A stretch of DNA of 64,000 nt from Brachybacterium fresconis (lineage in GTDB: Bacteria; Actinomycetota; Actinomycetes; Actinomycetales; Dermabacteraceae), in contig NZ_JAGIOC010000001.1 of assembly GCF_017876515.1 (NCBI RefSeq), forward strand, positions 496,001 to 560,000. Reading direction: 5' to 3'. A program made the position numbers and the translations under genes. The notes under the pieces were generated by a model. The model made no database searches, was not told the DNA's origin, and saw only the letters and a program-made list of their open reading frames with translations. Numbering within the stretch: the first letter of the stretch is position 1; every line of letters starts with the position of its first letter. Below are positions 9,928 through 30,891 of the stretch, piece after piece.

Positions 9928-10563
9928 GTGAAGCTGGAGTTCCCCCTGCTCGGCCTGCTGGCCGCCCGGTCCATGACCGGCTACGACATCGCACGATGGA
10001 CCCGCGTCGAAGGCAAGTTCGCAGGCCTGGACCGACACCCGAGCCAGATCTACCGGCTTCTCGGCCGGATGGAGGCCGACGGCTGGGTGACCCATGTGGT
10101 TGACCCGCGCGACAGCGCTCCGGACGGCAAGGTCTACTCCATCACCGATGCCGGCTTCGACCGACTCCTGCGCTGGGTCCGTTCCGTGTACACCCCTCCC
10201 CGCCGGTTCCAGGATCCTGAGTTCACCGCCCGGCTGCGGATCGCAGCGATGCTCGACCTCGAGCGCGCCTGCGAGCTAGTTGATGAGGAGCTCGATGCCC
10301 GCCGCGCCGTCGTGCGCGAGAACCGCGGCCGTCCTCGCGCGGAGGACCACCTGCCGAAACCGGCCCGGGCCGAGGTGGACGTGGTATTGCTGGCCCTCTT
10401 CGGCGACGAGTTGAACGCCTACGGAGAGTCGGAGATCGATCGATGGATCGCCTGGCTCGAGCATCTTCGGATTCAGCTGCGCGGCCGACTGTCCGCCCGC
10501 TCGACCGACCCCATAGTCTCCGCCGAGGCCCCGTCCGCCGGCGTCGAGGGGATGAACCGATGA
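9928..10563 (+). CDS. PadR family transcriptional regulator
   Basis: The 211-residue protein begins like a PadR regulator (LEFPLLGLLAARSMTGYDI) with a winged helix (residues about 1-85, including SQIYRLLGRMEADGWV) and a C-terminal helical Vir-like dimerisation region (about 95-175). The start is GTG at 9928, set by AAAGAGGAGG at 9914-9923. The stop overlaps the sulfatase start by 4 bp (ATGA), so regulator and enzyme are co-translated. It is similar in layout to the PadR at 28676-29287. PadR proteins usually repress nearby genes and release on binding small aromatic or lipophilic compounds. Confidence 0.92.
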   Translation: MKLEFPLLGLLAARSMTGYDIARWTRVEGKFAGLDRHPSQIYRLLGRMEADGWVTHVVDPRDSAPDGKVYSITDAGFDRLLRWVRSVYTPPRRFQDPEFTARLRIAAMLDLERACELVDEELDARRAVVRENRGRPRAEDHLPKPARAEVDVVLLALFGDELNAYGESEIDRWIAWLEHLRIQLRGRLSARSTDPIVSAEAPSAGVEGMNR

Positions 10564-12338
10564 GGGCCGTCATGCTGCTGTTCGACAGCCTGAACCGTCG
10601 CTTCCTGCCTCCCTACGGCGCCCAGGGGATCCATGCCCCGAACTTCAGCCGCCTGGCGGAGCACACGGCACGCTTCGCCACCACCTACGCCGGATCCATG
10701 CCCTGCATGCCCGCCCGCCGCGAGCTGCACACGGGTCGCTACAACTTCCTGCACCGTTCCTGGGGCCCCCTGGAGCCGTTCGACGACTCAGTCCCCCAGA
10801 TGCTCTCCGAGGCCGGGGTCTACACGCACCTCGTCACCGACCACCAGCACTACTGGGAGGACGGCGGTGCCACCTATCACAACCGCTTCGACTCCTACGA
10901 GTTCTTCCGCGGCCAGGAGGGTGACGCTTGGAAGGGCCACGTGGCGGATCCCGAGCCGCCAGCGCGCAGCACTCGGCGCATCCGCCATGGACTGTGGCGC
11001 CAGGACCTCATCAACCGCCAGTACCTCACTGAGCAGGCGGACCACCCGCAGACCCGCACGGTCGACGCCGGCCTGGAGTTCATGGCCACCAACCGCGATG
11101 AGCAGGACTGGCTCCTCCAGATCGAGTGCTTCGACCCGCACGAACCATTCTTCTCGTATGCGGAGCACCAACGTCTCTACGGCCTGGATCCCGAGGACGA
11201 GCGCCGCACCGACTGGCCGGACTACAAGAAGGCCGACGAGGACGAGGAGACGACCGCGCGGGTGCGCGCGGAGTACTCGGCCCTGCTGAGCATGTGCGAC
11301 GACTCCCTGGGCCGGATCCTGGACCGCTTCGACGAGGAGAACCTCTGGGAGGACACCGTCCTGCTGGTCTGTACCGATCACGGCTTCCTGCTCGGCGAGC
11401 ACGGCTGGTGGGGCAAGAACGTCCAGCACTGGTACGACGAGAACATCCACACCCCGCTGTTCTTGTGGGACCCGCGTGACGGGAGCGTCGGGCAGACCCG
11501 AGAAGCGCTCGTGCAGACCGTCGACCTCGGCCCCACGCTGCTGGACATCTTCGGGCAGCAACCGACCGACCGCATGCAGGGCCGCTCTATCCTGCCCGTG
11601 CTGCGCGACGACACCCCTGTGCGCGACCACGCTCTTTTCGGCACGTTCGGCGGGCACGTCAACGTGACCGACGGTCGGTACGTCTACATGCGGGCCAGCG
11701 CGGGCCCGGAGAACGCGCCGCTGCTCGAGCACACGCTGATGCCCACCCACATGAACCAGCGCTTCTCCCCGGAGGAGCTCGCCGAGGCCGAGCTACACCC
11801 GCCGCTGTCCTTCACTCAGGGAGCACCGGTGCTGCGCATGCCCGGTCGCGCCGTGGGGAACCCCTACGAATTGGGCACCGCGCTGTTCGACCTGGACACC
11901 GATCGGGAGCAGCAGACGCCGTTGCTGGACGACGAGCTCGAGCTGCGGATGATCGACCTGCTGCTGGCGGCCCTACGCGAGGCCGACGCCCCGCTCTCGC
12001 AGTACCTCCGGCTCGGGCTCCCACAGCACGGCCCCGCCACCGAGGAGCACTTGCTCGCACGACGCCAACACGGCGCGTACATGACCTCGCTCGAGGCCCC
12101 ACCCTCGGCGCAGGAGTTCGACGCGTCCTCGCCGGTCCTCACCTGCACCCTGCGCGAGCTGATGGCCACTCCGGACGGCGCCGGACCCTTACGCTCGGCG
12201 CTCGGTCCGGCGGCCGACACGCTTGCCGCCCTCGCCGGCGCGTCTACGCTGCTCCAGCTCGCCCCGCTCTCCCGAGCCCTGGACCGCGAAACCCTGCACC
12301 GAATCGACCGGGAGCTGTCCCCACCAGCCACAGTCTGA
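10560..12338 (+). CDS. Cys-type sulfatase, cytoplasmic (cassette 1)
   Basis: This 592-residue alkaline-phosphatase-superfamily sulfatase hydrolyses sulfate esters. Cys49 in SMPCMPARRELHTGR (CxPxR) is the residue FGE converts to formylglycine. Metal ligands are seen at the N-terminus (MLLFDSLN) and in TDHGFLLGEHGWWGK. It has no signal peptide, so it should act in the cytoplasm after uptake of its substrate. The start at 10560 overlaps the PadR stop; GAGGGG lies 9 bases upstream. About 95 residues at the C-terminus extend beyond the usual sulfatase core. It is paralogous to the sulfatase at 26883-28640, sharing YNFLHRSWGPLEPFDDS. Substrate unknown. Confidence 0.93.
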   Translation: MRAVMLLFDSLNRRFLPPYGAQGIHAPNFSRLAEHTARFATTYAGSMPCMPARRELHTGRYNFLHRSWGPLEPFDDSVPQMLSEAGVYTHLVTDHQHYWEDGGATYHNRFDSYEFFRGQEGDAWKGHVADPEPPARSTRRIRHGLWRQDLINRQYLTEQADHPQTRTVDAGLEFMATNRDEQDWLLQIECFDPHEPFFSYAEHQRLYGLDPEDERRTDWPDYKKADEDEETTARVRAEYSALLSMCDDSLGRILDRFDEENLWEDTVLLVCTDHGFLLGEHGWWGKNVQHWYDENIHTPLFLWDPRDGSVGQTREALVQTVDLGPTLLDIFGQQPTDRMQGRSILPVLRDDTPVRDHALFGTFGGHVNVTDGRYVYMRASAGPENAPLLEHTLMPTHMNQRFSPEELAEAELHPPLSFTQGAPVLRMPGRAVGNPYELGTALFDLDTDREQQTPLLDDELELRMIDLLLAALREADAPLSQYLRLGLPQHGPATEEHLLARRQHGAYMTSLEAPPSAQEFDASSPVLTCTLRELMATPDGAGPLRSALGPAADTLAALAGASTLLQLAPLSRALDRETLHRIDRELSPPATV

Positions 12339-12487
12339 GCCCGCCCGCACCCCACAGCGCAGCGCCTGCCGCGTGTCGCCGGACGAATCCTTCCCCTGCC
12401 CCCGGGGAAACGTGCCCCTGACTCAATGCGTCTCTCCGCCCCACGATTCCGCAGGCACCACCCCTGTTTCTCGACGAGGAGATCCCC

Positions 12488-13831
12488 ATGACCACGCCTG
12501 TCACCAAAACCACCGCACCTGCCCAGAAGGAGGTGATCGTCCCGCGTCGCTGGCGCAGGCTCGCGCTCATCGGCGGGTCGCTGTTCGCCGACAACAATGA
12601 GACCAGCGTCATCAGCACGCTGGCACCGGTCATCTTCGCGGCGCTCGCCCTCCCTCTCAGCGCGCTGGGTGTGCTCGTCGCCGTCGGCAAGACGGTGGCG
12701 GTCGTGTTCGGACCGATCTGGGCGTACGTCGCCAGGCGCACGAACCGCAAGCTCACCTTCGTGCTGACCTCAGCCGCGGCGGGACTGGCCACCATCGCCA
12801 CCGGCTTCGCCCAGGACTACGCGACGCTCCTGCTGGGCTACGGCATCACCGCGGTCTTCGTCGCCGCCTCGCTCCCGCTGGTCTCCGAGATCACCTCCGA
12901 TCTATTTGGAGAAGCTTCCCGGGGCCGCGCCTCCGGGTACACCTGGGGCGCGGTGTCCCTTATCGGCTCGATCGCAGGGCCGCTGCTCGGACAGCTCGCG
13001 AACATCGAAGGCGGCTGGCGCTGGGGCTTCTTCATCTGGGGTTCGATCATGATCGTGCTAGCGGTGATGATCTTCCTGCTCTTCGAGGACCCGGGCGTTG
13101 GCGCCAGCGAACCAGCCTCGACGGTGATGACCGCCGAACAGCGCGCCTCGCACGAGAAGATCACCTGGCCCAAGGTACGCCAGATGTTCCAGATCCCCAC
13201 CTTCGTGCTGATGCTCATCCAACGCCTGGTGAGCGGTCACCTGCTCATTGCCTCCTTCGGCACAATCTTCTTGGTCAATACCTACGGTTTCACCACCGCC
13301 GTCGCAGCTGTCGTGCTCCTGCCCTTCGGCATCGGCTACATGGTCGGCACCTTCGGCGGCGGCATCGTCACCGATCTCCTGCACCGGGCGTTCCCCAATT
13401 GGGGCCGGATCCTGGTGCTGCAGGTAGCCCAGCTCGGCTTCGGAATCGTCGCGATCGTTGCGACCCAGTTCGACTGGGGCGGTATCGAGGTGTTCGCCGC
13501 GTTCTGGGCCGTACTCGGTTTCCTCCAGGGACTGAACCCGGGCGTCAACCGCCCGATCGTCGCCGCCGTCATCCCACCGGAACTACGCGGCGCCGCCTTC
13601 GCCCTGATGCTCAGCGTGTTCGAAGCCGCCGCCTACGCGATCTTCAACCTGCTCGCCGGCTTCCTCGGCGAAGCCTATGGCCTCACTGTTGTGATGCTCT
13701 GGCTGCCCGGTATTCTCATGCTGGTCAACGGCGTGTTCGTCACCATCCTCTACAAGACCTACCCACGCGATGTAGCACGCTTTGAGGCCACAATGCTCGC
13801 CCGCACCCAGGAGAATGCCGCGCAACGCTGA
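12488..13831 (+). CDS. MFS transporter (cassette 1)
   Basis: The 447-residue protein has about 12 hydrophobic segments and the loop 2-3 motif region around RRTNRKLTF typical of the major facilitator superfamily. ACGAGGAGA upstream sets the ATG. It follows the sulfatase after 149 bases on the same strand, so it probably imports the sulfated substrate or exports the product. It is paralogous to the MFS at 29533-30891: both contain LSGHLL, FGIGY(L/M)VGT(L/F)GGG, LNP(G/P)VNRPIVA(A/S)VIPP and TYPRDVA. Its direction of transport cannot be read from sequence. Confidence 0.9.
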   Translation: MTTPVTKTTAPAQKEVIVPRRWRRLALIGGSLFADNNETSVISTLAPVIFAALALPLSALGVLVAVGKTVAVVFGPIWAYVARRTNRKLTFVLTSAAAGLATIATGFAQDYATLLLGYGITAVFVAASLPLVSEITSDLFGEASRGRASGYTWGAVSLIGSIAGPLLGQLANIEGGWRWGFFIWGSIMIVLAVMIFLLFEDPGVGASEPASTVMTAEQRASHEKITWPKVRQMFQIPTFVLMLIQRLVSGHLLIASFGTIFLVNTYGFTTAVAAVVLLPFGIGYMVGTFGGGIVTDLLHRAFPNWGRILVLQVAQLGFGIVAIVATQFDWGGIEVFAAFWAVLGFLQGLNPGVNRPIVAAVIPPELRGAAFALMLSVFEAAAYAIFNLLAGFLGEAYGLTVVMLWLPGILMLVNGVFVTILYKTYPRDVARFEATMLARTQENAAQR

Positions 13832-14767: not shown

Positions 14768-15727
14768 TCAGCGTCTCTCCAAGAGGGCGTCCGTCTCTGC
14801 AGCCAACGGTGCGGTGGCCGGTCCTTCGCGAGTGACGGCGATCGCAGCGGCCGCGCCCGCACGAACCAGTGCCGTATCCAGGTCGCGCCCGGCGGCGAGG
14901 CACGCCGCGAGGACGCCGGTGTGGGCATCGCCTGCTCCGTTCGTGTCGACTGCTTCGACGCGTGGAGCTGGGAAGGTTCGAACGTGTCCGTCGGGCTGGG
15001 TGAGCAGGCTGCCTTGCGCCCCATTGCGGAGCACCAGCGCGCGCCTGGATCGGCGGGCAAGGCTCTGCGCGAGACGGTCGTGGGGAGCGTCTTCGAGCGA
15101 GGTTACGTTCCCCCATCGCTTTGCGAGGATCCGGGCTTCACGGGAGTTCGTCGTCCACACGTCAGCGCGGGTCCAGAGTGCATCGAGCGCTTCGTCGTCG
15201 ATGTTCCCGATCACGGGGCCAGGGTCGACGACCACGGTCACCCCCACGTCGAGACGCGGCAGCCAGCTCAGCAACGCGTCTCGGTTGCGCGCGTGGACCA
15301 TCGAGTATCCGGAGACGCACACGACGTCGCCGGGACGGGGTGCCGCCCGCTGCAGCATCCTCGGGTCCGGATGCGTCTCGGCGCCGCGCGTGGAGACGAA
15401 CGTGCGCTCGGCGGAGTCGTCGACCAGGGCGATGCTGAAGCCACTGTCGTGGTCCGGGGCTGCTGGGGCGAGGACCGAGATGCCCTCTGCCTCAAGCGCT
15501 TCTCGCACGATCTGTCCGAACGGGCCAGTCCCATGACCGCCTGGGTACAACACCTCAGCGCCGTCGCGCGCAGCCGCAGCCATGGCGTTGAACCCACCTC
15601 CTGCAAGGAAGCGGTGTGAGGGAGCGAAGACGTCTCCACCGGGCTCGGGTAGTGCCGGCACGCGCATCACGAGATCCACGAGGGCCTGCCCTGTATGGAC
15701 TACCCGGCCCCGGCCGGGCGCGGTCAT
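14768..15727 (-). CDS. PfkB family sugar/nucleoside kinase
   Basis: This 319-residue ribokinase-fold enzyme phosphorylates a sugar or nucleoside. The N-terminal GGGFNAMAAAARDGAEV and the C-terminal DTNGAGDAHTG (261-271, with the catalytic base Asp267) are the two PfkB signatures. The start at 15727 overlaps the permease stop by 4 bp (ATGA). As the last gene of a GntR-ADPRG-NCS1-kinase operon it probably phosphorylates the ribose or nucleoside released by the upstream hydrolase. The closest functional parallel is E. coli YegV. Substrate is inferred from context only. Confidence 0.9.
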   Translation of the reverse strand: MTAPGRGRVVHTGQALVDLVMRVPALPEPGGDVFAPSHRFLAGGGFNAMAAAARDGAEVLYPGGHGTGPFGQIVREALEAEGISVLAPAAPDHDSGFSIALVDDSAERTFVSTRGAETHPDPRMLQRAAPRPGDVVCVSGYSMVHARNRDALLSWLPRLDVGVTVVVDPGPVIGNIDDEALDALWTRADVWTTNSREARILAKRWGNVTSLEDAPHDRLAQSLARRSRRALVLRNGAQGSLLTQPDGHVRTFPAPRVEAVDTNGAGDAHTGVLAACLAAGRDLDTALVRAGAAAAIAVTREGPATAPLAAETDALLERR

Positions 15728-17175
15728 GACCGAGCCCCCTTCGGTGCGTCCTTCGCCCCGCCCAGCACTGCGTAAACGACGGCGGCTACGACTCCAGAGA
15801 TCAGCCAGTCCATCCCGTTGCGGCCCAGCCACGTGTCGAACAGCGGGCCCGTGTAGACAGGAGTGGAACCGGGGGTCATCTGCATGAACAGGACCCCGCA
15901 CACGATGCCGATTAGCCACGGTGCAAAGGCGCGCCAGCGGATGCCACCCGTGTACCAGTATCCGCTGGAGCGGCTCAGGTCCATGAGGGCTTCTTCGTTG
16001 TAGTAGTGCCGCCGGATCATGTCGACCAGGAACACACCGACCCAGGCGGAGATCGCCACGGCGAGCACCGAGATGAAGGACACGAACGGACCGTAGAACC
16101 CGTCGGCTACCAGCAAGAATAGGAGCGAGGCCGTGGTGGTGACCACGACGTCGACGATGACGGCGTGCGAGCGCTTCAGACGGATTCCGAGGGTCAACGT
16201 GACCAGGCCCGCGGAGTACACCGACAGGTGGTTCGACAGCAGCAGCCCGATGAACGAGACGATCAGGTAAGTGATCGCCACTGCGGGCGGCAGCGAGGCA
16301 CGGATCGTGTCCATGGGGTTCGCCGAGTCGACGATCTCGCTGTGGGAAGCGCCCAGCAGCGCCCCCATGGAGATCATCACTGTCAGGGGGATACCCGCAC
16401 CTGCGGCGGCTGACAGCACGAGAGGGGCGGCCTTGACCCTGGGTGACTGGTAACGGGCCATGTCTGCGCCCGAGTTTGCCCACCCAATGCCCGTCCCGGC
16501 GGCGATGGTGCCGATGCCGGTGAGGACGGCGGCGAGGGAGCCGGAGGAGGTGGCGGCCACGGCAGACCAGTCGACGCGGACCACGAGGAACACGATGATC
16601 ACGAGATTGATCGCCCCGAATATCCAGGTGGCCCACTTTTGGACTACGAGGATCGTGGCGTGTCCCATGGCGGAGACCGCGACGGTCAGACCCACGAAGA
16701 GTGCGACGCCGACGACGGTCACCACGGGCGCTTGCTTAGCCGCGGAGGCGGTGCCTAGCAAGAGGGAGGAGATCGTCACGACTCCGAGTGCAGCAGTGGA
16801 GGTGTTGACGGTTTCCCAGCCCAGCCGTGAGATCAGGGCCACGGAGGTCGGACCGGCGTTCCCCCGGGCGCCGAAGATCGCGCGCGAGAGAGTCAGGCTG
16901 GGGGCGCCACCGCGTTGACCGGCCACGGAAATGAGGCCGACCAGGGCGAACGAACCAAAGGCGCCAACGATCGCGACGATGGCCGCTTGCCAGACCGAGA
17001 GGTCGAGGGCGATAAGGGAGATGCCGAGCGGGAGGCCGATCACCGAGATATTAGCGGCGAACCAGACCCAGAATAGTTGGAGCGGGTATCCGTGCTGTTC
17101 AGATCTCGGGACAGGTTCGATGCCGCGTTGTTCGACAGCGTTGAGCGGAGCGGCATTGTTCGAGAGGTCAGTCAA
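15724..17175 (-). CDS. NCS1-type nucleobase/nucleoside permease
   Basis: The 483-residue membrane protein has about 12 hydrophobic segments and resembles purine-cytosine permeases: LFWVWFAANISVIGLPLG in segment 1, RAIFGARGN, and GIGWANSGADMARYQS around segments 6-7. It should import a nucleobase, nucleoside or related compound with H+ or Na+. The start is TTG at 17175, overlapping the ADP-ribosylglycohydrolase stop by 8 bases, with only a weak ribosome binding site, which suggests translational coupling. It takes the place of the MFS-type nucleoside carrier of the E. coli yegTUVW set. Confidence 0.88.
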   Translation of the reverse strand: MTDLSNNAAPLNAVEQRGIEPVPRSEQHGYPLQLFWVWFAANISVIGLPLGISLIALDLSVWQAAIVAIVGAFGSFALVGLISVAGQRGGAPSLTLSRAIFGARGNAGPTSVALISRLGWETVNTSTAALGVVTISSLLLGTASAAKQAPVVTVVGVALFVGLTVAVSAMGHATILVVQKWATWIFGAINLVIIVFLVVRVDWSAVAATSSGSLAAVLTGIGTIAAGTGIGWANSGADMARYQSPRVKAAPLVLSAAAGAGIPLTVMISMGALLGASHSEIVDSANPMDTIRASLPPAVAITYLIVSFIGLLLSNHLSVYSAGLVTLTLGIRLKRSHAVIVDVVVTTTASLLFLLVADGFYGPFVSFISVLAVAISAWVGVFLVDMIRRHYYNEEALMDLSRSSGYWYTGGIRWRAFAPWLIGIVCGVLFMQMTPGSTPVYTGPLFDTWLGRNGMDWLISGVVAAVVYAVLGGAKDAPKGARS

Positions 17176-18178
17176 GGTGATCTACTTCGTCTCGTAGGGT
17201 CAAGAGCTGGTCGGTAATCGGGTGCAGGGACAGACCGCTGATCGACTCGACCTTCTGGGTGGCGTTTGCAGGAAATGCCGCGGTGCCGTGACAGGCGCCG
17301 AGGATGGCACCGGTCATGGCGGCGATGGTGTCGGTATCACCACCAAGGGATGCCGCGCGAGTCAGAGCACGCCACGGATCGCTGGCGTCGTGGTCGGCGA
17401 TCAAGAGCGCGCACACCACCGATTCCTGCGACTGGACTGAGCTGCCGACAACGTCGTAGAGGAAGGCGTCAAACGCATCGTCGGCCAAGCTTCGGATGGA
17501 GTCCCGGAAGGCGGCCGTCCTCTCGGCGATCGAGGCACCAGCTACCCAGTGCCCGCGTGCGGCGCCGCGCCGTGCGGCTGAGATCGCACGGTCCACGGCC
17601 TCGTGTGGGCTAAGTCCTTCGATGCCACTGCTGACTGCGGTCGCCACGGCAGACGCGCCGGCGATGCCAAGGCCCGTGTTATGGGTTACACGGCCGGACT
17701 CGACGACCGCGTCCTCAAGAGCCGCGCCAGGCCGGTAGGCAATGCCGACGGGTGCGATACGCATGGCCGCCCCATTTGTGGTGCCCGTGCTCCCGGTCTC
17801 ATCTGGCGGTATCCCGTCCTGGAGGTTGCGCAACGCGAGCCGCGTCGAGGGACCTAGCAAATCCAGTGAACCGCGGCGGATCATCGATCGTTCCCAGTCC
17901 AACAGTGCATTGGCCAGCGCGAGCGGGTCGACGTGTCCCCCACCTTCAATCAACAGGTGGGCCAGGATGATCGCCTGTTCAGTGTCGTCAGTGATGGATC
18001 CCGCTGGCATCGACGGAGCGATCGGCTGGTCGGGTGCAGCGTCCACGAGGCCATTGATCCGGTTGTACCGTTCCCGGATGCTGGTTCGGGACAAGGACTG
18101 CGTCGGCATGCCCAAGGCATCGCCGAGCGCGAGCCCGAGCAACGCGCCATGGGCGCGGTCGTGCGAGGTCGTACTCAC
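17168..18178 (-). CDS. ADP-ribosylglycohydrolase family protein
   Basis: This 336-residue protein has the ADP-ribosylglycohydrolase fold markers: GALLGLALGDALG (11-23), the metal-binding SITDDTE (61-67) and GGDTDTIAAMTGAI near the C-terminus, which together bind two Mg ions. Family members cleave N-ribosyl bonds. In this operon with a permease and a PfkB kinase it more likely splits an imported ribosylated small molecule than ADP-ribosylated protein. Its ATG overlaps the GntR stop (ATGA). E. coli YegU is the analogous protein. Confidence 0.9.
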   Translation of the reverse strand: MSTTSHDRAHGALLGLALGDALGMPTQSLSRTSIRERYNRINGLVDAAPDQPIAPSMPAGSITDDTEQAIILAHLLIEGGGHVDPLALANALLDWERSMIRRGSLDLLGPSTRLALRNLQDGIPPDETGSTGTTNGAAMRIAPVGIAYRPGAALEDAVVESGRVTHNTGLGIAGASAVATAVSSGIEGLSPHEAVDRAISAARRGAARGHWVAGASIAERTAAFRDSIRSLADDAFDAFLYDVVGSSVQSQESVVCALLIADHDASDPWRALTRAASLGGDTDTIAAMTGAILGACHGTAAFPANATQKVESISGLSLHPITDQLLTLRDEVDHLD

Positions 18179-20821: not shown

Positions 20822-21160
20822 TCACATGCGTTGCAGGAGGAAACCGGCACAGATGACGCCGATGACGAGAACAGCGATCGTAGCGAAGAGGACCGCGGGG
20901 CCTCCGTGGGCGAGTACCTGCCCGCGGTGCAGCTGTGCGTGCCTTCTACGGTACTCCCGTGCCGTGAATGTGTAGGCCAGAAGGGCGAAGCACGCAACGA
21001 CGAGGCCTGCAAGAACGGCGAACACACCCAGCTCTTCCACGGTGCACCGCAGCGCAATCAAGCTCGTCAGCCCGAATGAGAGACACGTGCGACGCCAGGC
21101 CAGCAATGTTCGTTCGAGCTGCAGGCCTCGGTCGAACACACCATCAGCCGGTGAGTTCAT
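20822..21160 (-). CDS. DUF202 small membrane protein (second copy)
   Basis: The 112-residue protein has the DUF202 start (FDRGLQLERTLLAWRRTCLSFGL) and about three membrane segments. DUF202 proteins such as YidG/YidH have no established function. The ATG overlaps the preceding DUF202 gene's stop by 4 bp, making a coupled FGE-DUF202-DUF202 set. The pair may form a heteromeric membrane complex; that is inference. Confidence 0.85.
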   Translation of the reverse strand: MNSPADGVFDRGLQLERTLLAWRRTCLSFGLTSLIALRCTVEELGVFAVLAGLVVACFALLAYTFTAREYRRRHAQLHRGQVLAHGGPAVLFATIAVLVIGVICAGFLLQRM

Positions 21161-21519
21161 GCGTAGATTCCGATCGTGACCAGAGATACGGCAATCACGA
21201 TGCCCACGGAGATGATCGCGCCGGTGGCGAGGCCGGGAAGCGCTTCGGCGCGACGCAAGGAGCGTTCGGCAGCGCGCCAGCCGAACCATGCCCGTACGAC
21301 CGCGAAGGTGCCCAGCGCGATGAAGACCGATGCCGCGGCGGTCCGCCAGCTTGACGCATCCGGGAGCGTGAGCGCTTCCAGCGCAAATGCGGCAGCGTAC
21401 ATCGCCAAAGCAGTGCGGAGCCAGGCGAGGAACGTGCGCTCGTTGGCCAGACTGAACCGCGGGTCTGGCTCCTCCCCCGTCTCATAAACGTTGCGTGGGA
21501 ATCGCCGCGGAGTGGTCAT
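21157..21519 (-). CDS. DUF202 small membrane protein (YidH-like, first copy)
   Basis: This 120-residue protein begins with a charged segment and then DPRFSLANERTFLAWLRTALA, the DUF202/YidH signature, followed by three hydrophobic segments. It lies between the FGE gene and a second DUF202 gene, with ATGA overlaps at both ends. Two adjacent DUF202 genes are common in bacteria (yidG-yidH), but the link to FGE is unusual and suggests a role near sulfate ester metabolism or its membrane side. Confidence 0.88.
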   Translation of the reverse strand: MTTPRRFPRNVYETGEEPDPRFSLANERTFLAWLRTALAMYAAAFALEALTLPDASSWRTAAASVFIALGTFAVVRAWFGWRAAERSLRRAEALPGLATGAIISVGIVIAVSLVTIGIYA

Positions 21520-22520
21520 GACAGCGCCTCCCGCCGCGCAACGGTGCGGAATCCGCCGTTGCCCATCGAGGAGTCCGGGGTGTTCTGCGAGCGCGCAGAG
21601 TTGCGGTAGCGGTTGCAGTACGAGATGTGGCAGAGGTAGCTGCCGCCACGCATGATCCGGGTCTGGCCGGTCTCGGGGCCGACGGGGTCGGTCACCACCA
21701 TGCGGTGCTCCGCGCTGGTGCCGCGCCGGTAGGTGGCGGGGTGGAACCAGTCCTCGCACCACTCCCACACGTTTCCGACGGGCTGCCAGAGCCCGTACCC
21801 GTTGGGCTCGAAGGTGCGTACGGGGGCGGTGGTGAGGAAGCCATCCTCGAGCGTGTTGGCTCGCGGGAAATCGCCCTGCCAGATGTTCGCACGCCAGCCG
21901 CCGGCGTCGACCTCTTCATCACCCCACGGGTACTTCGCACCCTCGATGCCACCACGCGCGGCATACTCCCACTCGGCTTCGGTGGGCAGGCGTCGGCCCG
22001 CCCACTCGCAATATGCCTGGGCGTCGTTCCAGCTCACATGCACGACGGGATGGTCGCCGAGGCCGTCCACGTCCGAGCTGCTCCCGCCGGGATGGCGCCA
22101 GTCAGCACCCTGCACTCCAGCCCACCAGGGGGCGCCCGTGACAGGGCCCATGACGTCCTCCTGCGTCGCCGCGATCGCCAGGTGGAAGACAGCGGAGAAG
22201 CCGAAGCTCTCCGCCTCGGTCACATATCCGGTGTCCTCGACGAAGCGGGCGAAGTCGTCGTTGGTGACCGTGGTGGCGTCGATGTCGAAGGCACTGATGG
22301 CGACGTCGTGGAGCGGGGCCTCGCCGTCGGCCCGGTTCCGATCGCCCGAGGAATCCCCCATCGTGAAAGAGCCGCCGGGGACCGCGATCTGCTCGATCGC
22401 GTGGCGTCCCGGGCGCTGGGTAATCCTCACTGTGCTCGCTGGGGCGATCCCGGCGAACTCAGCGCGCGACGGGACCCCGCAGGAGCACCCTGCACCCGGC
22501 ACTTCCGCTGCTTCGACCAC
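21516..22520 (-). CDS. Formylglycine-generating enzyme (sulfatase-activating)
   Basis: FGE oxidises the CxPxR cysteine of sulfatases to formylglycine, using oxygen and copper. This 334-residue protein has the FGE/SUMF1 fold motifs in order: GGSFTMGDSSGD, TNDDFARFVEDTGY, HPVVHVSWNDAQAYCEWAGRR, RLPTEAEWEYAARGG and GNVWEWCEDW. Both catalytic cysteines are present: Cys297 and Cys302 in SYLCHISYCNRYRNSAR. GTG at 22520 is chosen because AAAGGAG lies 5 bases upstream; a frame extends further to 22598. A Cys-Gly motif (GCSCG) near residue 11 is shared with the broken copy. It has no signal peptide, matching three cytoplasmic sulfatases in this island. Confidence 0.95.
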   Translation of the reverse strand: MVEAAEVPGAGCSCGVPSRAEFAGIAPASTVRITQRPGRHAIEQIAVPGGSFTMGDSSGDRNRADGEAPLHDVAISAFDIDATTVTNDDFARFVEDTGYVTEAESFGFSAVFHLAIAATQEDVMGPVTGAPWWAGVQGADWRHPGGSSSDVDGLGDHPVVHVSWNDAQAYCEWAGRRLPTEAEWEYAARGGIEGAKYPWGDEEVDAGGWRANIWQGDFPRANTLEDGFLTTAPVRTFEPNGYGLWQPVGNVWEWCEDWFHPATYRRGTSAEHRMVVTDPVGPETGQTRIMRGGSYLCHISYCNRYRNSARSQNTPDSSMGNGGFRTVARREALS

Positions 22521-22625
22521 CTGGGCTCCTTTCGTGAGGCCACCATGCTCGCAGATCTGGGGGTGCGCAGCTGGTCGGCCGCTCGTGGCAACGGTCACGA
22601 GTGCTCAAAGGATTCAGCATTGGTT

Positions 22626-22757: not shown

Positions 22758-24191
22758 ATGACCAGACCGACGATCGCCGCACCACCTCGCCCGCACACGC
22801 CGATCCGTCCGTTCGGCGCCCGCGACAGGATCGGTTACCTGTTCGGAGACCTCGGGAACGACTTCACGTTCATCCTCGCCTCGGCGTACCTGATGGTGTA
22901 CTACACCAACATCGCCGGGCTCGAGGCCGCGCATGTCGGGCTGCTCTTCCTCGCCGCGCGCCTGGTCGATGCGTTCACCGACATCGGCTGGGGACGCTTC
23001 CTCGACCGCCATGTCCCCTCCGCGAAGGGGCGGTTCCGTCCCTGGGTCGCACGAATGGCCGTGCCGGTCGGCATCGCGAGTGCGCTGATGTACGTGCCGT
23101 TCACGGCCGACTGGGCGTACGGCGCCAAGCTCGCCTACGCCGCCGTCACGTATCTGCTGTGGGGATCGGTCTTCTACACGACGACGAACATCGCCTACGG
23201 CTCCATGGCCTCCGTGCTGACGATCGTCCCGGGCGAACGCGCCTCCCTCTCAGTGTTCCGCGGCATCGGCGCGAACATCGCCGGGCTGTTCGTCTCCCTG
23301 GTGCCGCCGCTCCTCATCTACACCATGGTCGACGGCCAGTCGCAGCTGGACGGCCAGCGCATGTTCCTCACCGCGATCGTGTTCTCGGCCCTGGCCGTCG
23401 TCTGGTACCTGCTGTGCACGACGAACGTCCGCGAGCGCGTGGCCGCCCCCGTCGGAACGGTCGAACGCCGCTCCCTCCTCAAGCTGGCGCGCTCTCTCGT
23501 GAGCAGCAGACCGCTGCTCACCCTGATCGCCGCGAACATCATCATCATGCTCGGTGCCCTGCTGATGGGCACGATCGCTGCCTATCTGTGGCTGTACCAC
23601 TTCAACGACGGCGCCCTCTCCGGTCCCGCACAGCTGACCTCCTACCTGCCCGGCTTGCTGCTCTCGCCCTTCGCTGCGCGACTCGCGGCGCGCTTCGGCA
23701 AGAAGGAGGTCGTCACCGTCTCGCTGATCCTCGCCGGCGGCGTGTACATCGCCATCTTCGCGCTGCACATCACCTCGGCCTGGGTCTTCATCGGGGCGTC
23801 CTTCTTCGCCGGCTTCGGCATCGGCTTCTACAACCTGATGGTGTGGGCTCTCGTCGGGGACATCATCGACGACGAGGAGCGGCGCAACGGAGAGCGGGAC
23901 GACGGCACCGTCTACGCCATCAACACGTGGGCTCGCAAGCTCGGACAGGCAGCCGCGGGCGGGCTCGGCGGATTCGCGCTCACCCTGGTGGGCTTCCAGT
24001 CCGGTCAGAGCACCCAGAGCGGAGAGACCGCCGACGGGATCTATACGATCGCCACCCTGGTGCCCGGCGTCCTCTTCCTGGTTGCCGCGGCGATCCTGCT
24101 GTTCCTCTACCCGCTCAATCGTGCTCGCGTGGATGCCAATGTGGCAGAGCTCGCGCGGCGACGAGACGAGAAGGAGTCCGAGACCCGATGA
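22758..24191 (+). CDS. GPH family (glycoside-pentoside-hexuronide) symporter
   Basis: The 477-residue membrane protein resembles MelB/GPH symporters: it opens with RIGYLFGDLGNDFTF, has RLVDAFTDIGWGRFLDR after segment 2, and a late NTWARKLGQAAAGGLGG helix. These carry glycosides with H+ or Na+. AAAGGAGAG (22747-22755) sets the ATG at 22758; the frame is open further upstream. It overlaps the LacI gene (ATGA) and is followed by a sulfatase, so it likely imports a sulfated or unsulfated sugar. Confidence 0.9.
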   Translation: MTRPTIAAPPRPHTPIRPFGARDRIGYLFGDLGNDFTFILASAYLMVYYTNIAGLEAAHVGLLFLAARLVDAFTDIGWGRFLDRHVPSAKGRFRPWVARMAVPVGIASALMYVPFTADWAYGAKLAYAAVTYLLWGSVFYTTTNIAYGSMASVLTIVPGERASLSVFRGIGANIAGLFVSLVPPLLIYTMVDGQSQLDGQRMFLTAIVFSALAVVWYLLCTTNVRERVAAPVGTVERRSLLKLARSLVSSRPLLTLIAANIIIMLGALLMGTIAAYLWLYHFNDGALSGPAQLTSYLPGLLLSPFAARLAARFGKKEVVTVSLILAGGVYIAIFALHITSAWVFIGASFFAGFGIGFYNLMVWALVGDIIDDEERRNGERDDGTVYAINTWARKLGQAAAGGLGGFALTLVGFQSGQSTQSGETADGIYTIATLVPGVLFLVAAAILLFLYPLNRARVDANVAELARRRDEKESETR

Positions 24192-25252
24192 CGCGTCCCC
24201 CCGCTCGCCCCACCCTCAAGGACGTCGCCTCGGCCGCGAATGTGTCGATCTCGACCGTCTCCTACGCTCTGAACGATCAGTCCCAAGTGCGGCTCGCCGC
24301 AGATACGCGCGCCAGGGTCCGACGCATCGCGAAGGACCTCGGCTACACACCGAACGGCATCGCCCGTTCGCTGCGGGCCCGCTCGAGCCGCACCGCGGGC
24401 GTGGTGATCAGCAAACCGTTGACCAACCCGCGGTACGCCGCCATCGTCCAGGGAATCGGCACCGCTCTGACCGAGCTCGGTTTCCGCATGTCGGTGCTTC
24501 CGGACGTCACCGGGGAGTCGTTCCTCGCGGACTGCCGCAGCGGGGTGCTGGACGGTCTGGTCTTCGTGGGACACGACGATGTAGAGCTCCCGTCCTCGCT
24601 GGCAGCGGCCGCCGCCGACGGCTCCTCCCCACTGGTGACGATCGACTGTGGGGCGCCGGAGGCGGACGCGACGTACTCGAGCGTCGATTTCGCCTACGAG
24701 CGCGGAGCAGAGGGGATGATCCGGCGTCTCGCCGAGCAGGGGATCACCACGATCCTGCACCTGCGTCCCGAGGTCCCTTCACGGGCGGAGCGGCAGCGCC
24801 AGGCAGCCATGATGCGTGTCCTGGGCGAGGTGGACGGCATCACGCTCCGGGTGATCAGCACCGGGCTGCGCGATGAAGATCTGCGACAGGTCGAGCGCTC
24901 GCCCGAGGCGATCGAGCCCTATCTCCGCACGAAGACCGCACGGCTGGCGTCGGCGCTGGAGTCGGTGGAGAGCGCCCCCGAGCGGACCGCTGTGCTGTGC
25001 TCCTGGGGCGCCGACGTCGAAGCGGCGCTCTCCGTTGCGCGCACCCGAGCGCCGGGGGTGACCATCGCGTCTCTTGCGGCAGGCGTGCCCCGGGTGGAGC
25101 TGTGGGACGAGCTGGTGTACTCCAGCCTGCCACTGGTCGACGCCGGGCACCGCGCAGCACACCTCCTCGCAGCGGTGCTGAGCCACGACCCGATCTACGA
25201 GCACGTGCTGCTGGAGCCCGTGCTCACGCCACCGGCCGCCCCTCGTCGCTGA
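24188..25252 (+). CDS. LacI family regulator
   Basis: This 354-residue repressor has the LacI HTH (TLKDVASAANVSISTVSYALND, residues about 9-30) and hinge helix (ARSLRARSSRTAGVV), followed by a periplasmic-binding-like sugar domain. The start overlaps the transporter stop by 4 bp. It likely binds the TCAAACGTTTGA palindrome upstream of the transporter and controls the transporter, itself and the sulfatase that follows 53 bases later. Confidence 0.92.
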   Translation: MTRPPARPTLKDVASAANVSISTVSYALNDQSQVRLAADTRARVRRIAKDLGYTPNGIARSLRARSSRTAGVVISKPLTNPRYAAIVQGIGTALTELGFRMSVLPDVTGESFLADCRSGVLDGLVFVGHDDVELPSSLAAAAADGSSPLVTIDCGAPEADATYSSVDFAYERGAEGMIRRLAEQGITTILHLRPEVPSRAERQRQAAMMRVLGEVDGITLRVISTGLRDEDLRQVERSPEAIEPYLRTKTARLASALESVESAPERTAVLCSWGADVEAALSVARTRAPGVTIASLAAGVPRVELWDELVYSSLPLVDAGHRAAHLLAAVLSHDPIYEHVLLEPVLTPPAAPRR

Positions 25253-26820: not shown

Positions 26821-26834
26821 CACCTGGACAACGT

Positions 26835-26869: not shown

Positions 26870-26882
26870 CGCATCGACATGC

Positions 26883-28640
26883 TCAGGCGCTTACGAGCGC
26901 CTCTCCGACTCGCCGCAGCTGATCGACGCTGATCGCACCGTGTGCCGCCAGGTCGTACAAGCTCATGCCCGGCGGCACGGAGACGGCCTCCGTCGCCATG
27001 ACGGACGACGCCTCGGCCTCGAGGGCAGCCCGGCCGCGGGTGGTGCCGGCCAGGTCGAGCAACGGTCCGGTCAGCAGGCCAGCGGCGGGCAGATCCTCGA
27101 GCCTAGGCATCGGTACGGCCATGTCCTGGACGCGTCCGGCATGCCGTCGCACAAGCAAGTGCTCCGGGGACACCTCTCCCTCGGCGGGCAGCCCGAGCCG
27201 TTCGAACTGGCTTCGGGGCGCCTCATTCGAGCGCATCGCCTCAACCAGCATCTTCGTCATTCGCAACTCCACCTCGTCATCTTGGAGGGGGTCGAGCTGT
27301 TCGGGATCTGCCTCGAGGTCAAACAGCACGCTGCCGTGCTGCCACGAGTTCATCCAGCCGCCTTGGGCCTCGACCCGGATCGTGCGCAACCCCTTGGTAA
27401 ACGTAAAGGGCTCGGCGGGAATCCAGTCCTGGAGCTCCGCCGGGCTGAAGCGCGAGCGCATGTGCGTGGGCATCAGCGTGAACTCCTCCAGCGGTCCGTT
27501 CTCCGGCGCTGAGGCGGACCGCATGTAGACGTACCGTCCATCCGTGATGTTGACGTGGCCACCATAGATCCCGAAGAGCGCCGGACGCGTCGTGCCCGCG
27601 GAGGCGTCTGACGGGGCGACGCCGAGGTCCGTGCCCTGCATGTCAGGCGTCGGCTCGATGCCGAAGTAGCGCAGCAGGGTCGGCGCGATGTCGATTGTCT
27701 GCGCGAGGTCGCCGCGACGGATGTCCGCGGCACCGCTGCGTGGATCCCACAGGAACATCGGCAGGTGCACCAGCTCGTTGAACCACGGCTGCACGGACTT
27801 CGCCCACCAGCCGTGCTCCCCGAGCAGGAAGCCGTGATCAGTGTTGACGATCAGCATTGTGTCATCCCACAGACCCTGCTCGTCCATCGCGTCGAGCACC
27901 CGACCCAGCGAGCGGTCGCACATGATCACCAGCGCCGCGTACTCCCGGCGCGCATGCTCGACCTGTGCCTCAGGCTGCGTGACCTTCTGATATCCGGGCC
28001 AGTCGAACTCGGGACCGTCGTATTCATGGGGGTAGAGGTCCTTGTAGTGCTGATGGGTAAAGAACGGTTCGTGTGGGTCGAACAGCTCGATCTGCACCAT
28101 CCAGTCGTCCGTCGCCGCGTTCGTCTCGACGAAGTGCAGGCCGGCGTCCACCGTGCGGGTCTGAGAGTGCTCGGATTCGGTGGGCATGTAGCTGCGGTTC
28201 ACGCGGTCCTGGTGGACCATCTGCTGCCCTAGCGGGGTGTCGCGCGCATCGGAGGCGACGACGCCCTTCCACGGATCACCCTCCTGCCCGCGAAAGAACT
28301 CCCAGGTCGAGTAACGGGTGTGGTACGTCGCCCCTCCGTCTTCCCAGTAGTGTGGATGGTCGGAGGCGAGGTGGGTGTGGATGCCGTGTTCTTTGAGGAT
28401 CTGAGGCATCGAGTCGTCGAAAGGTTCGAGGGGACCCCAGGAGCGGTGCAGGAAGTTGTAGCGCCCGGTGTGCATCTCTCGTCGTGCGGGCATGCACGGC
28501 ATCGAGCCTGCGTAGAAGTTGTCGAAGGTGACGACCTTTTCGGCGAGCCGTGCGAAGTTCGGCGCTTCGACGATCGTGTCGCGATACTGCTCGAGCATGT
28601 GTCGATTGAGGCTGTCGAACATCAAGATGATGGCCTTCAT
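26883..28640 (-). CDS. Cys-type sulfatase, cytoplasmic (cassette 2)
   Basis: The 585-residue protein is a paralogue of the sulfatase at 10560-12338. It shares the N-terminal layout (MFDSLNRHMLEQY), Cys49 in SMPCMPARREMHTGR, the same YNFLHRSWGPLEPFDDS segment, NTDHGFLLGEHGWWAKS and a C-terminal extension of about 95 residues. The extension is the least conserved part between the two. No signal peptide is present. The start at 28640 follows AAGGAGAG; the frame is open upstream but lacks a better start. It lies 35 bases downstream of a PadR gene. Confidence 0.93.
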   Translation of the reverse strand: MKAIILMFDSLNRHMLEQYRDTIVEAPNFARLAEKVVTFDNFYAGSMPCMPARREMHTGRYNFLHRSWGPLEPFDDSMPQILKEHGIHTHLASDHPHYWEDGGATYHTRYSTWEFFRGQEGDPWKGVVASDARDTPLGQQMVHQDRVNRSYMPTESEHSQTRTVDAGLHFVETNAATDDWMVQIELFDPHEPFFTHQHYKDLYPHEYDGPEFDWPGYQKVTQPEAQVEHARREYAALVIMCDRSLGRVLDAMDEQGLWDDTMLIVNTDHGFLLGEHGWWAKSVQPWFNELVHLPMFLWDPRSGAADIRRGDLAQTIDIAPTLLRYFGIEPTPDMQGTDLGVAPSDASAGTTRPALFGIYGGHVNITDGRYVYMRSASAPENGPLEEFTLMPTHMRSRFSPAELQDWIPAEPFTFTKGLRTIRVEAQGGWMNSWQHGSVLFDLEADPEQLDPLQDDEVELRMTKMLVEAMRSNEAPRSQFERLGLPAEGEVSPEHLLVRRHAGRVQDMAVPMPRLEDLPAAGLLTGPLLDLAGTTRGRAALEAEASSVMATEAVSVPPGMSLYDLAAHGAISVDQLRRVGEALVSA

Positions 28641-28675
28641 TTGGCTCTCCTTCGTCCAGTGGCGGCGGGCGATGA

Positions 28676-29287
28676 TCAGGCGTCGCCGGGGGGTTGCGCG
28701 AACCCGAGGGCGGGTCGGCGCGGCATGGTCTCGGGCGCGTCGAGGAGCTCTCGACGCAGGGTCGCGACGGAGTCGATGTGGGCGTCCATCGCGGCCGCAC
28801 CGTTGTTGTGGGCCCATTCGCCGACAATGTCCGAGAGCTCGTCGTCGAAGGGCAGCACCGGCGTGAGTTCGAGGCCGCGGTCGCGGTGGCGATACTTGGC
28901 AACCTCCCGTGCCCGCGCATCAAGCTCAGTGTCGAGCAGCAGGATCAGCTCGTCCCGGGACATGAAGCCTGCGAACGCGAGTCGCGCCGACAGCTCCGGG
29001 TCGACGTGCCGGGAAGGTGGGGGGTATGGACCCGTGAGCCAGTCGAGGAAGACGGTCGCGCCCTCCTCGGTGAGAAAGTACCGCTTGGCGTCCGTGGCGC
29101 CGGGGCGTGGCTCCAGCTCGTGGAGTGCCCATCCGTTGCGCTCCATGGTCGCCAAGGAGCGGTAGACCTGACTCATCTGGGTGTTCGACCGCAGGAAACG
29201 GCCGTGGGTGTCCATGTACTTCTTCAGGTCGTAGCCGGTGCGTGGATGCATCGCCAGCACCCCGAGCAGCAGATGCTCTAGCTTCAT
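28676..29287 (-). CDS. PadR family regulator (cassette 2)
   Basis: The 203-residue protein starts LEHLLLGVLAMHPRTGYDL, followed by a winged helix (residues about 1-85, with MSQVYRSLATMERNGWAL) and a helical C-terminal part, the same plan as the PadR at 9928. It lies 35 bases before a sulfatase gene on the same strand and is divergent from an MFS gene. Two palindromic sites sit in the 245-base space between it and the MFS gene, so it probably controls both directions. Confidence 0.92.
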   Translation of the reverse strand: MKLEHLLLGVLAMHPRTGYDLKKYMDTHGRFLRSNTQMSQVYRSLATMERNGWALHELEPRPGATDAKRYFLTEEGATVFLDWLTGPYPPPSRHVDPELSARLAFAGFMSRDELILLLDTELDARAREVAKYRHRDRGLELTPVLPFDDELSDIVGEWAHNNGAAAMDAHIDSVATLRRELLDAPETMPRRPALGFAQPPGDA

Positions 29288-29318
29288 TGCCTACCTCCTC
29301 CATGAGAACCCAAGAACC

Positions 29319-29334
29319 ATGACACATGTGCCAT
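29319..29334. promoter_or_regulatory. PadR-type operator, regulator-proximal site
   Basis: ATGACACATGTGCCAT is a near-perfect 16-bp palindrome (7 of 8 arm positions match) of the ATG-N-CA-type form described for PadR operators. It lies 32 bases upstream of the PadR start. Confidence 0.65.
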
Positions 29335-29433
29335 GCATCCGCAAGCCGCCGCATGGCCGCCACCGTCACGGACAGGCGCGCCGGACGCGCTTGACCAAGC
29401 ATTCGCTTTGTGTCATCGTTTTCGCCAATCGGT

Positions 29434-29449
29434 ATGACTCAAGTGTCAT
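29434..29449. promoter_or_regulatory. PadR-type operator, transporter-proximal site
   Basis: ATGACTCAAGTGTCAT repeats the half-sites ATGAC and GTGTCAT of the site at 29319. A further lone half-site GTGTCAT lies at 29410-29416. The pair of sites flanks the promoter space of the divergent MFS gene. Confidence 0.6.
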
Positions 29450-29532
29450 GGAATCGTCGAGCGCAGGCGCTCACCCTCCATGCTTCGCGCCGACATTCCC
29501 TCCCACGCCTGACGACGACGACAGGAGCTCCT

Positions 29533-30891
29533 ATGGCCCATTCCGCCCCGACCTCACCACCGGTCGCTGCCCCGCCCTCCGGTAGTGAAAGGACCGTCCC
29601 CCACCGCTGGCGCAACCTCGCCACCCTCACCGGGTCCACCGCCGTGGATAGCACCGAGGGCAGCATCACCGGCACACTTTTCCCGAGCATCGCCACCGCA
29701 CTCGGCCTGAACAGTAGTCATCTCGGCACGATGACCGCACTCGGCAAACTCGCCTCAGCCCCGGCGGGTCCACTATGGACCTGGCTGGCCTCCATTACCT
29801 CGCGCAAGAGCGTCTTGGTAATCACTTCGCTCCTCGGCGGCGCGTTCGGCGTCGCGTCTGCCTTCAGCCAGGGCTACGTCGCGCTGCTGGTGCTAAACGT
29901 CCTGATGGCGGCGTCCCTCGTTGGCGGCTCGCCCGTCGGTAACGCGCTGATCCTGGACTCCTTTTCCGACAAAGACCGGGCACGCGCAGTCTCCTACTTC
30001 TACGGCGCGGTCAACGGCATCACATCCCTCATCGGGCCTCTGATCGGCCTGTTCACCCGATCCGACGAAGGATGGCGCTACGGCCTGATGACGATGGGCG
30101 CCATCGCGATCGCAGCGGGACTGGCCCAATGGGCCCTCATCAAGGACCCGGGCGTCGGAGCCTCCGAGCTGGAGTTCGCCGACCTCTCAGCCTCCCGTCG
30201 CCCACCGGAAAAGACCTCGATCGCTTCGATCCTGAGCCTGTTCAAAGTACGTAGCTACTCGATCATGATGCTCTCGCGCCTGCTGTCGGGGCACCTGCTC
30301 ATCTCCGTCTTCGGCGTGACGTTCCTTGTCAATGAGCGCGGCTTCACCAACGCCACCGCAGCAATAGTGCTCGCCCCCTTCGGCATCGGCTATCTCGTCG
30401 GCACTCTCGGCGGTGGCGCTCTGGTCGGTTGGCTCGACCGCAAGATGCCCGACCGCGGACGAATCTGGTATATTCAGGCAGCGCAGCTTGGCTTCGCAGT
30501 GGCTGCGCTCATCGCATCGCAGTTCGACCTCGGTAGCATCGGTTTCTACTCCGTGCTGTGGGCCTTCATGGGAGCAGCCCAAGGACTGAACCCGCCGGTA
30601 AACAGGCCGATCGTCGCTTCGGTCATCCCTCCCCAAAGGCGTGGCCAGGCGATGGCCGTGTTCATCACAGTCTTCGAGACGATCGGCTGGGCAGTCTTCT
30701 CGATCGGAGCCGGCCAGCTCGCCACCACGTACAGCATCCAGACCGTGTTCCTCTGGGTCCTCGTCGTCCTGATGATCGTCAATGCACTGGTTCTCGGTCT
30801 GCTGCACTTCACTTACCCGAGGGATGTCGCGGCCGCACGTGCCGAACGAGAGCGCGAGCGCACCGCCGCACTGACAGACAACGCGACGTGA
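29533..30891 (+). CDS. MFS transporter (cassette 2)
   Basis: The 452-residue protein has 12 predicted hydrophobic segments and is a paralogue of the transporter at 12488-13831, with the shared FGIGYLVGTLGGG, LNPPVNRPIVASVIPP and TYPRDVA motifs. It begins at ATG 29533 after CAGGAG. It is divergent from the PadR-sulfatase pair and separated by the operator region. Its role is probably import of the substrate for the neighbouring sulfatase. In cassette 1 the transporter instead follows the sulfatase, so the modules have been rearranged. Confidence 0.9.
   Translation: MAHSAPTSPPVAAPPSGSERTVPHRWRNLATLTGSTAVDSTEGSITGTLFPSIATALGLNSSHLGTMTALGKLASAPAGPLWTWLASITSRKSVLVITSLLGGAFGVASAFSQGYVALLVLNVLMAASLVGGSPVGNALILDSFSDKDRARAVSYFYGAVNGITSLIGPLIGLFTRSDEGWRYGLMTMGAIAIAAGLAQWALIKDPGVGASELEFADLSASRRPPEKTSIASILSLFKVRSYSIMMLSRLLSGHLLISVFGVTFLVNERGFTNATAAIVLAPFGIGYLVGTLGGGALVGWLDRKMPDRGRIWYIQAAQLGFAVAALIASQFDLGSIGFYSVLWAFMGAAQGLNPPVNRPIVASVIPPQRRGQAMAVFITVFETIGWAVFSIGAGQLATTYSIQTVFLWVLVVLMIVNALVLGLLHFTYPRDVAAARAERERERTAALTDNAT

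What the first reader, a model, noticed from the sequence alone, without database searches (positions are those of the whole stretch)
9928..30891. Two rearranged copies of a PadR-cytoplasmic sulfatase-MFS cassette in one island
Each cassette pairs a PadR regulator, a signal-less sulfatase of 585-592 residues with CMPAR at residue 49, and an MFS transporter. The members of each pair share distinctive motifs, yet the gene order differs (PadR-sulfatase-MFS all on plus in cassette 1; sulfatase and PadR on minus divergent from MFS in cassette 2). Sulfatases are usually exported; here uptake and cytoplasmic desulfation appear to be the plan, with PadR as the switch. I know of no characterised system with exactly this makeup, though I could not search.
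Basis: partly seen in the sequence, partly recalled or inferred. Interest (0 to 1): 0.7.

Follow-up and report, generated by a model that had tools for sequence, protein, structure and literature searches.

The report
Two PadR-switched sulfatase operons
Two distantly related copies of a widespread bacterial gene set, each a switch protein, an enzyme that strips sulfate from small molecules inside the cell, and a transporter, lie near each other in this genome; the parts are ordinary, but the set and its DNA control site look undescribed.

Summary
In detail: PadR1-SulfA-MFS1 (9928-13831, +) and SulfB-PadR2 (-) / MFS2 (+) (26883-30891) are homologous gene by gene (52, 36, 44% identity). "Two rearranged copies in one island" is wrong: SulfA and SulfB sit in different clades with kin in other genera, and a single clade is rejected (p-AU 5.65e-9). 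This is a recurring actinobacterial module: in 90 loci of the nearest relatives, PadR lies within 5 kb in 50, this MFS type in 41, a formylglycine-generating enzyme (FGE) in 53. The switch has support: a motif learned from 20 PadR promoters of other genera gives its two best hits in the 64-kb window just upstream of PadR1; PadR2 has a different conserved box. Cytosolic sulfatases are no oddity here: 13 of 13 in the genome show no signal peptide by eye. Best reading: two separately regulated, substrate-inducible uptake-and-desulfation operons, one with its own FGE broken. Substrate and inducer are unknown. New variant of a known kind; moderate interest.

The parts
8810..9697 (-). Truncated FGE fused to an integrase-like C-terminal tail; probably the remnant of the FGE gene that stands divergent to PadR in relatives
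   Evidence: PF03781 profile positions 6-127 of 255 only; 67% identity to the intact FGE over 177 aa; tail matches PF00589 weakly, E 0.0037, below Pfam's cut-off; full FGE at the same place in same-genus L119
9869..9896 (+). Putative PadR1 operator: TTGCACTTAGTC repeated with a 16-bp period (9869-9880, 9885-9896)
   Evidence: Overlaps the top two hits in the 64-kb window of a motif trained on 20 other-genus PadR promoters; core 9872-9893 is the only match with at most 1 mismatch in 4.63 Mb to a pattern written after seeing the site; coordinates
9928..10563 (+). PadR1, putative local repressor
   Evidence: PF03551 E 6.6e-10
10560..12338 (+). SulfA, cytosolic S1-type sulfatase, Cys49 in CMPAR; start overlaps the PadR1 stop by 4 bp
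   Evidence: PF00884 E 3.5e-34; catalytic residues conserved in the 54-row alignment; sulfatase fold
12488..13831 (+). MFS1, putative importer
   Evidence: PF07690 E 2.7e-32
20822..21139 (-). DUF202 membrane protein
   Evidence: PF02656 E 1.9e-11; its cluster spans 10 loci, window included
21157..21519 (-). DUF202 membrane protein
   Evidence: PF02656 E 1.1e-14; its cluster spans 12 loci, window included
21516..22598 (-). Intact FGE (sulfatase-activating enzyme); start may be 22430
   Evidence: PF03781 E 2e-80, profile positions 4-254 of 255
22758..24191 (+). MFS_2 (GPH-type) sugar transporter
   Evidence: PF13347 E 6.6e-76
24188..25252 (+). LacI-type regulator (named by eye from its N-terminal sequence, no profile search run)
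   Evidence: Sequence; similar gene with the same neighbours in L119, L125, L126
25306..26820 (+). SulfC, third sulfatase, CSPSR motif, close to the solved BT4656-type GlcNAc-6-sulfatase
   Evidence: PDB 5g2v E 1.8e-126; PF00884 E 2.1e-55
26883..28640 (-). SulfB, cytosolic S1-type sulfatase, Cys49 in CMPAR
   Evidence: PF00884 E 4.7e-34; 52% identical to SulfA
28676..29287 (-). PadR2, putative local repressor
   Evidence: PF03551 E 3.7e-8
29317..29335 (-). Putative PadR2 operator at the PadR2-SulfB promoter (CATGGCACATGTGTCATGG)
   Evidence: Seen, with variation (TGTGTAAT in L125-L127), in all 7 same-genus cassette-2 loci compared; one perfect match to CAYRTGTGTNATGG in the genome, three more with one mismatch (post-hoc pattern)
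29409..29451 (+). Two further GTGTCAT boxes (29409-29416 and 29443-29451) upstream of MFS2
   Evidence: GTGTCA cores 33 bp apart in all 7 loci; 18 TGACAC/GTGTCA hits in 1755 bp of these regions against 8 in the whole 64-kb window, 3 of those 8 being these sites; coordinates
29533..30891 (+). MFS2, putative importer, divergent from PadR2
   Evidence: PF07690 E 5.9e-37; 44% identical to MFS1

Best explanation
These are two separately descended (probably separately acquired) members of one actinobacterial operon family: PadR repressor, cytosolic S1-type sulfatase and importer, often with an FGE nearby to activate the sulfatase. Without substrate, PadR sits on a box beside its own promoter and keeps the operon off. 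A small sulfated compound, probably a sulfated sugar or glycoside, enters through the MFS and makes PadR let go; FGE turns Cys49 into formylglycine; the sulfatase frees sulfate inside the cell. PadR1 and PadR2 have different boxes, so the cassettes are separate switches. Cassette 1 has a broken FGE beside it and must rely on one of the genome's two intact FGEs. Shown by sequence or computation: gene content, homology, separate ancestry of the sulfatases, conserved active site, fold, conserved promoter motifs. Inferred: repression, ligand release, import direction, FGE dependence, substrate class.
For: Homology and coordinates. Recurrence: 32 PadR-sulfatase pairs in direct same-strand order (30 other loci and both window copies), 20 of the 32 with exactly a 4-bp overlap; within 5 kb of the sulfatase: PadR 50, MFS 41, FGE 53 of 90 loci. 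Separate ancestry. Motif trained without the window's genus has its top two hits in 64 kb at PadR1's promoter; leave-one-out with under 60% PadR identity: the locus-wide top hit lies within 200 bp upstream of PadR in 20 of 32. PadR2-side boxes in 7 of 7 close relatives. D9, C49, R53, H95, H194, D273, H274, K286 identical in 54 of 54, window's two included. FGE genes. MFS 41, ABC permease 26, both 0 of 90. Sugar-linked neighbours: MFS_2 transporter, SulfC, glycosidases within five genes in 24 of 90 loci.
Against: No binding, expression or activity data. The motif search missed 12 of 32: seven PadR2-type loci, L044, L055, L061, L103, and PadR1 itself; for the two window entries the other window promoter was in the training set, so those two tests are not clean. 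In one search the third-best window hit (10.0) is close to the second (11.7). After correction for shared ancestry, MFS/ABC exclusion points the right way but is not significant (median p 0.25), nor is PadR-MFS co-occurrence (median p 0.5). MFS and a substrate-binding protein occur together in 1 of 90 loci (L093). In 40 of 90 loci no PadR lies within 5 kb (some loci are short), and Curtobacterium and Patulibacter cassette-1 relatives have a TetR-type gene instead. No GH1/GH3 cluster member was seen in the window.
Confidence: 0.68

Rival explanations
1. The cassettes are a duplication inside one island with later inversion.
For: Same three gene families within 21 kb; FGE sequence at both places.
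Against: Identity only 36-52%; the tree puts SulfA with Curtobacterium, Patulibacter and Nocardia and SulfB with a Streptomyces-rich clade; one clade of the ten same-genus rows rejected, p-AU 5.65e-9, the group being named after the tree was seen. The MFS and PadR trees also keep the same-genus A and B sets apart (no AU test). Of 37 other same-genus genomes 2 carry type A and 6 type B, none both among the matches listed (at most 13 candidates per genome were scored).
Confidence: 0.03
2. The MFS exports the desulfated product or a toxic aglycone and the cassette is a detoxification unit; PadR senses the compound, as in phenolic-acid and drug-responsive PadR systems.
For: PadR proteins are known in phenolic acid stress and multidrug export (recalled; PMC4534193 on LmrR and PMC6804342 on PrhP seen only as listing and abstract start). 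MFS1 and MFS2 hit efflux models weakly among others, all below cut-off.
Against: Where this MFS is absent, an ABC permease with a binding protein (named by eye), importer-like by make-up, often takes its place; glycosidases and a sugar transporter are neighbours.
Confidence: 0.2
3. The main role is sulfur scavenging: PadR responds to sulfur status rather than to the substrate.
For: Sulfatases release sulfate; the genome holds 13.
Against: The PadR1 pattern has one match in the genome, the PadR2 pattern one perfect match and three with one mismatch, as expected for local rather than global regulators (both patterns post hoc); two different boxes for two cassettes.
Confidence: 0.12
4. The conserved upstream boxes are extended promoter elements, not PadR operators.
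For: PadR2-side boxes lie near possible -10 hexamers (by eye).
Against: In 10 of 32 promoters the cross-genus box matches a pattern that asks for it downstream of a -35/-10 pair (no shuffled control). In cassette-1 relatives without PadR (L039, L052) the best score is 0.8 and -2.2, against 18 or more in 18 of the 20 training loci.
Confidence: 0.12

Closest known systems
Choline sulfatase / phosphonate monoester hydrolase / dimeric arylsulfatase subgroup of the alkaline phosphatase superfamily (BetC of S. meliloti, SpAS1, RlPMH)
   Different: 22% identity over the structurally aligned part to BetC; the Gln15 partner of Lys309 is Ser or Thr (44 and 10 of 54); 111 and 107 bits against NCBIfam's choline sulfatase cut-off of 433
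PadR-family local repressors
   Same: PF03551 domain; heads its own operon; conserved box next to its own promoter
   Different: No PadR tied to a sulfatase operon among the papers listed (30 of 89 listed; 20 of 51; 4 of 4; 10 of 43)
BT4656-type GlcNAc-6-sulfatase (SulfC only)
   Same: E 1.8e-126 to PDB 5g2v
   Different: SulfC stands with an MFS_2 transporter and LacI-type gene; it is not SulfA or SulfB (25.5% identity to SulfA)

Membership tests
FGE-dependent S1-type sulfatase (PF00884) | CxPxR nucleophile motif | tested here: met
   C49, P51, R53 in 54 of 54 rows, SulfA and SulfB included
FGE-dependent S1-type sulfatase (PF00884) | Profile match above curated cut-off and sulfatase fold | tested here: met
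FGE-dependent S1-type sulfatase (PF00884) | Formylglycine formation and sulfate ester hydrolysis | not testable with these tools
   Needs mass spectrometry and assay
Choline sulfatase (TIGR03417) | Score above the curated cut-off of 433.45 bits | tested here: not met
   111.1 and 107.1 bits
PadR family (PF03551) | N-terminal winged-helix domain above cut-off | tested here: met
   39.3 and 33.7 bits against 27
PadR family (PF03551) | Binds its own promoter and responds to a ligand | not testable with these tools
   Conserved boxes are consistent but there are no binding data
Aerobic FGE (PF03781), copy 21516-22598 | Full-length domain | tested here: met
   Profile 4-254 of 255; C-terminal cysteine pair present by eye (role recalled)
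Aerobic FGE (PF03781), copy 8810-9697 | Full-length domain | tested here: not met
   Profile 6-127 of 255 only
Duplication within the island | The two copies are each other's nearest kin | tested here: not met
   Sulfatases only: p-AU 5.65e-9 against one same-genus clade

The most novel reading that the evidence does not exclude
Actinomycetota carry a modular, exchangeable sulfate-ester uptake unit: a PadR switch with a recognisable operator, a cytosolic sulfatase of an uncharacterised subfamily (Asp-Ser/Thr where choline sulfatase has Asp-Gln), and an interchangeable importer (MFS or ABC), plugged into a shared FGE-DUF202 activation core. The units spread horizontally, keep private operator codes so that several can coexist, and target sulfated glycosides; the DUF202 pair would assist FGE.
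Probability: 0.3. Interest if true: 0.55.

Novelty: new variant of a known kind. Interest (0 to 1): 0.38.

Why it matters
If right, a conserved operator lets one predict which sulfatase operons are inducible and use PadR as a reporter to find the substrates of an uncharacterised sulfatase subfamily. Soil and host-associated actinobacteria would have a defined route for using sulfate esters inside the cell, and the PadR boxes could serve as sensors of sulfated compounds.

Tried and rejected

Corrections to my notebook: entry 3 says 21 of 32 in the leave-one-out test; the recount is 20. It also says that no other sulfatase has a signal before two of them were looked at.

Papers: PMC5870055 and PMC5066984 seen as passages; all others as listings with the start of the abstract.
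Full report
Observation. The window is bases 496001-560000 of contig 1 of a 4.63-Mb genome; the tools give it no name. Both cassettes exist as described. SulfA and SulfB share 52% identity over 565 residues, PadR1 and PadR2 36% over 184, MFS1 and MFS2 44% over 423. The PadR1 stop and SulfA start overlap by four bases; PadR2 and SulfB are 35 bases apart. The genome has two intact FGE genes plus the fragment and six PadR matches, one below cut-off; two of the six stand beside SulfA and SulfB.

How common. With 11 stretches from unnamed kin, 90 loci have a called sulfatase of this family; one more, L060, had none called. PadR lies within 5 kb in 50 of 90, this MFS type in 41, FGE in 53, an ABC permease (named by eye) in 26, its binding protein in 24; GH1 or GH3 clusters (families for GH3, by eye for GH1) lie within five genes in 24 of 90. 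Thirty-two PadR genes, both window copies included, are directly upstream of the sulfatase on the same strand, 20 of these with a four-base overlap and 4 with a one-base overlap. In an even draw of 296 phylum genomes, own included, 6 had the family at E at most 1e-100, two of them with an in-frame stop; in the window's genus 11 of 38 genomes, own included, have a match above 600 bits. The two thresholds differ, but it is a patchy accessory trait.

Ancestry. In a 92-row sulfatase tree SulfA groups with two same-genus orthologues (L119, L120), Curtobacterium, Patulibacter, Nocardia and Microbacterium oryzae (10 rows, 99*), SulfB with six same-genus orthologues in a 17-row clade with Streptomyces and one Nocardia (99*). 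Holding the ten same-genus A and B rows together costs 125.5 log units, p-AU 5.65e-9; the group was named after the tree was seen. In the PadR and MFS trees type A again joins the same other-genus kin where these have the gene, and the seven type-B genes form their own set. The link of B with Streptomyces is not seen there, no AU test was run on them, the MFS tree warns of long branches, and three type-B loci (L125-L127) have an MFS well apart from the window's. Among 38 same-genus genomes only the window's shows both types in the matches listed, with at most 13 candidates per genome scored. In L119 the order is DUF202-DUF202-FGE, then PadR1-SulfA-MFS1-GPH-LacI-SulfC; in L125 and L126 it is DUF202-DUF202-FGE, GPH-LacI-SulfC, then SulfB-PadR2 and MFS2. 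The window matches the second layout plus a detached cassette of the first type with a broken FGE. The simplest story, an inference, is that different PadR-sulfatase-MFS units plug into a common FGE core.

Switch. Upstream of PadR in Microbacterium, Agromyces, Streptomyces, Nocardia and Pseudonocardia a box of the form CACATAgGTG-n5-GCACATA stands near the start of the operon. A strict pattern that asks for a -35, a -10 and then the box matches 10 of 32. A 26-base motif trained on 20 such regions, with the window's genus and two outliers (L103, L061) left out, scores 14.1 at 9860 and 11.7 at 9868, its two best in the 64-kb window; the third is 10.0 at 52101. The best hits of L119 and L120 are likewise upstream of PadR; those of the four type-B loci scanned (L124, L125, L128, L129) are not. 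With leave-one-out training on PadRs under 60% identical, 20 of 32 have their locus-wide top hit within 200 bases upstream of PadR. The 12 misses are seven PadR2-type loci, L044, L055, L061, L103 and PadR1; for the two window entries the training set held the other window promoter, so those two tests are not clean. Of 41 control loci in which gene calling saw no PadR, two (L074, L116) score over 30, and both have a PadR by direct search; L067 scores 17.6 unexplained; the other 38 score 11.3 or less. A post-hoc pattern for the PadR1 box has one match in the genome with up to one mismatch, against 16 for the reversed pattern. PadR2 has CATGGCACATGTGTCATGG at its own promoter, with variants in the relatives, and two GTGTCAT boxes 33 bases apart before MFS2 in seven of seven related loci, which are close kin and not independent. 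Both divergent units could thus be controlled together.

Import. MFS and the ABC permease are never together within 5 kb (41, 26, both 0 of 90; Fisher 2.2e-9 without tree correction); MFS and the binding protein are together in one, L093. With independent pairs the direction agrees but the median p is 0.25. This favours import by the MFS without proving it. SulfC is close to the solved GlcNAc-6-sulfatase 5g2v (E 1.8e-126), so sulfated carbohydrates are probably at least part of the region's business.

Literature. Searches for PadR with sulfatase in several wordings and for cytoplasmic sulfatase in actinobacteria listed no paper on such an operon; some searches showed only the top of longer lists, and most subscription journals are not held, so this is weak evidence of absence.

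Verdict. A real, recurring, probably locally regulated sulfatase operon family, present twice through separate descent; parts known, combination and operator apparently undescribed, substrate unknown.

Noticed in passing
20822-21519: A pair of DUF202 membrane protein genes sits next to FGE and recurs beside FGE in other genomes (L058, L069, L119, L124-L126 among others); a functional link with formylglycine formation is possible.
   Followed up: partly
8810-9697: The cassette-1 FGE is cut after about half its domain and continues in frame into a tail with a weak phage integrase match.
   Followed up: partly
14768-18900: GntR-type regulator, ADP-ribosylglycohydrolase-like, NCS1-type permease and PfkB-type kinase genes form a compact minus-strand operon between the cassettes (named by eye).
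   Followed up: no
L045, L046, L049-L051, L057, L085: Another sulfatase type (CLPSR motif, cluster 14) also sits between a PadR and an MFS, with FGE and often GH3, so PadR-sulfatase pairing is not limited to the SulfA/SulfB family.
   Followed up: partly
L039:1446-1982, L052:7391-7927: Cassette-1 relatives in Patulibacter and Curtobacterium have a TetR-type gene in the place of PadR and no PadR-like box: a regulator swap.
   Followed up: partly
L067: A Mesorhizobium locus in which no PadR was found scores 17.6 with the PadR-box motif; unexplained.
   Followed up: no
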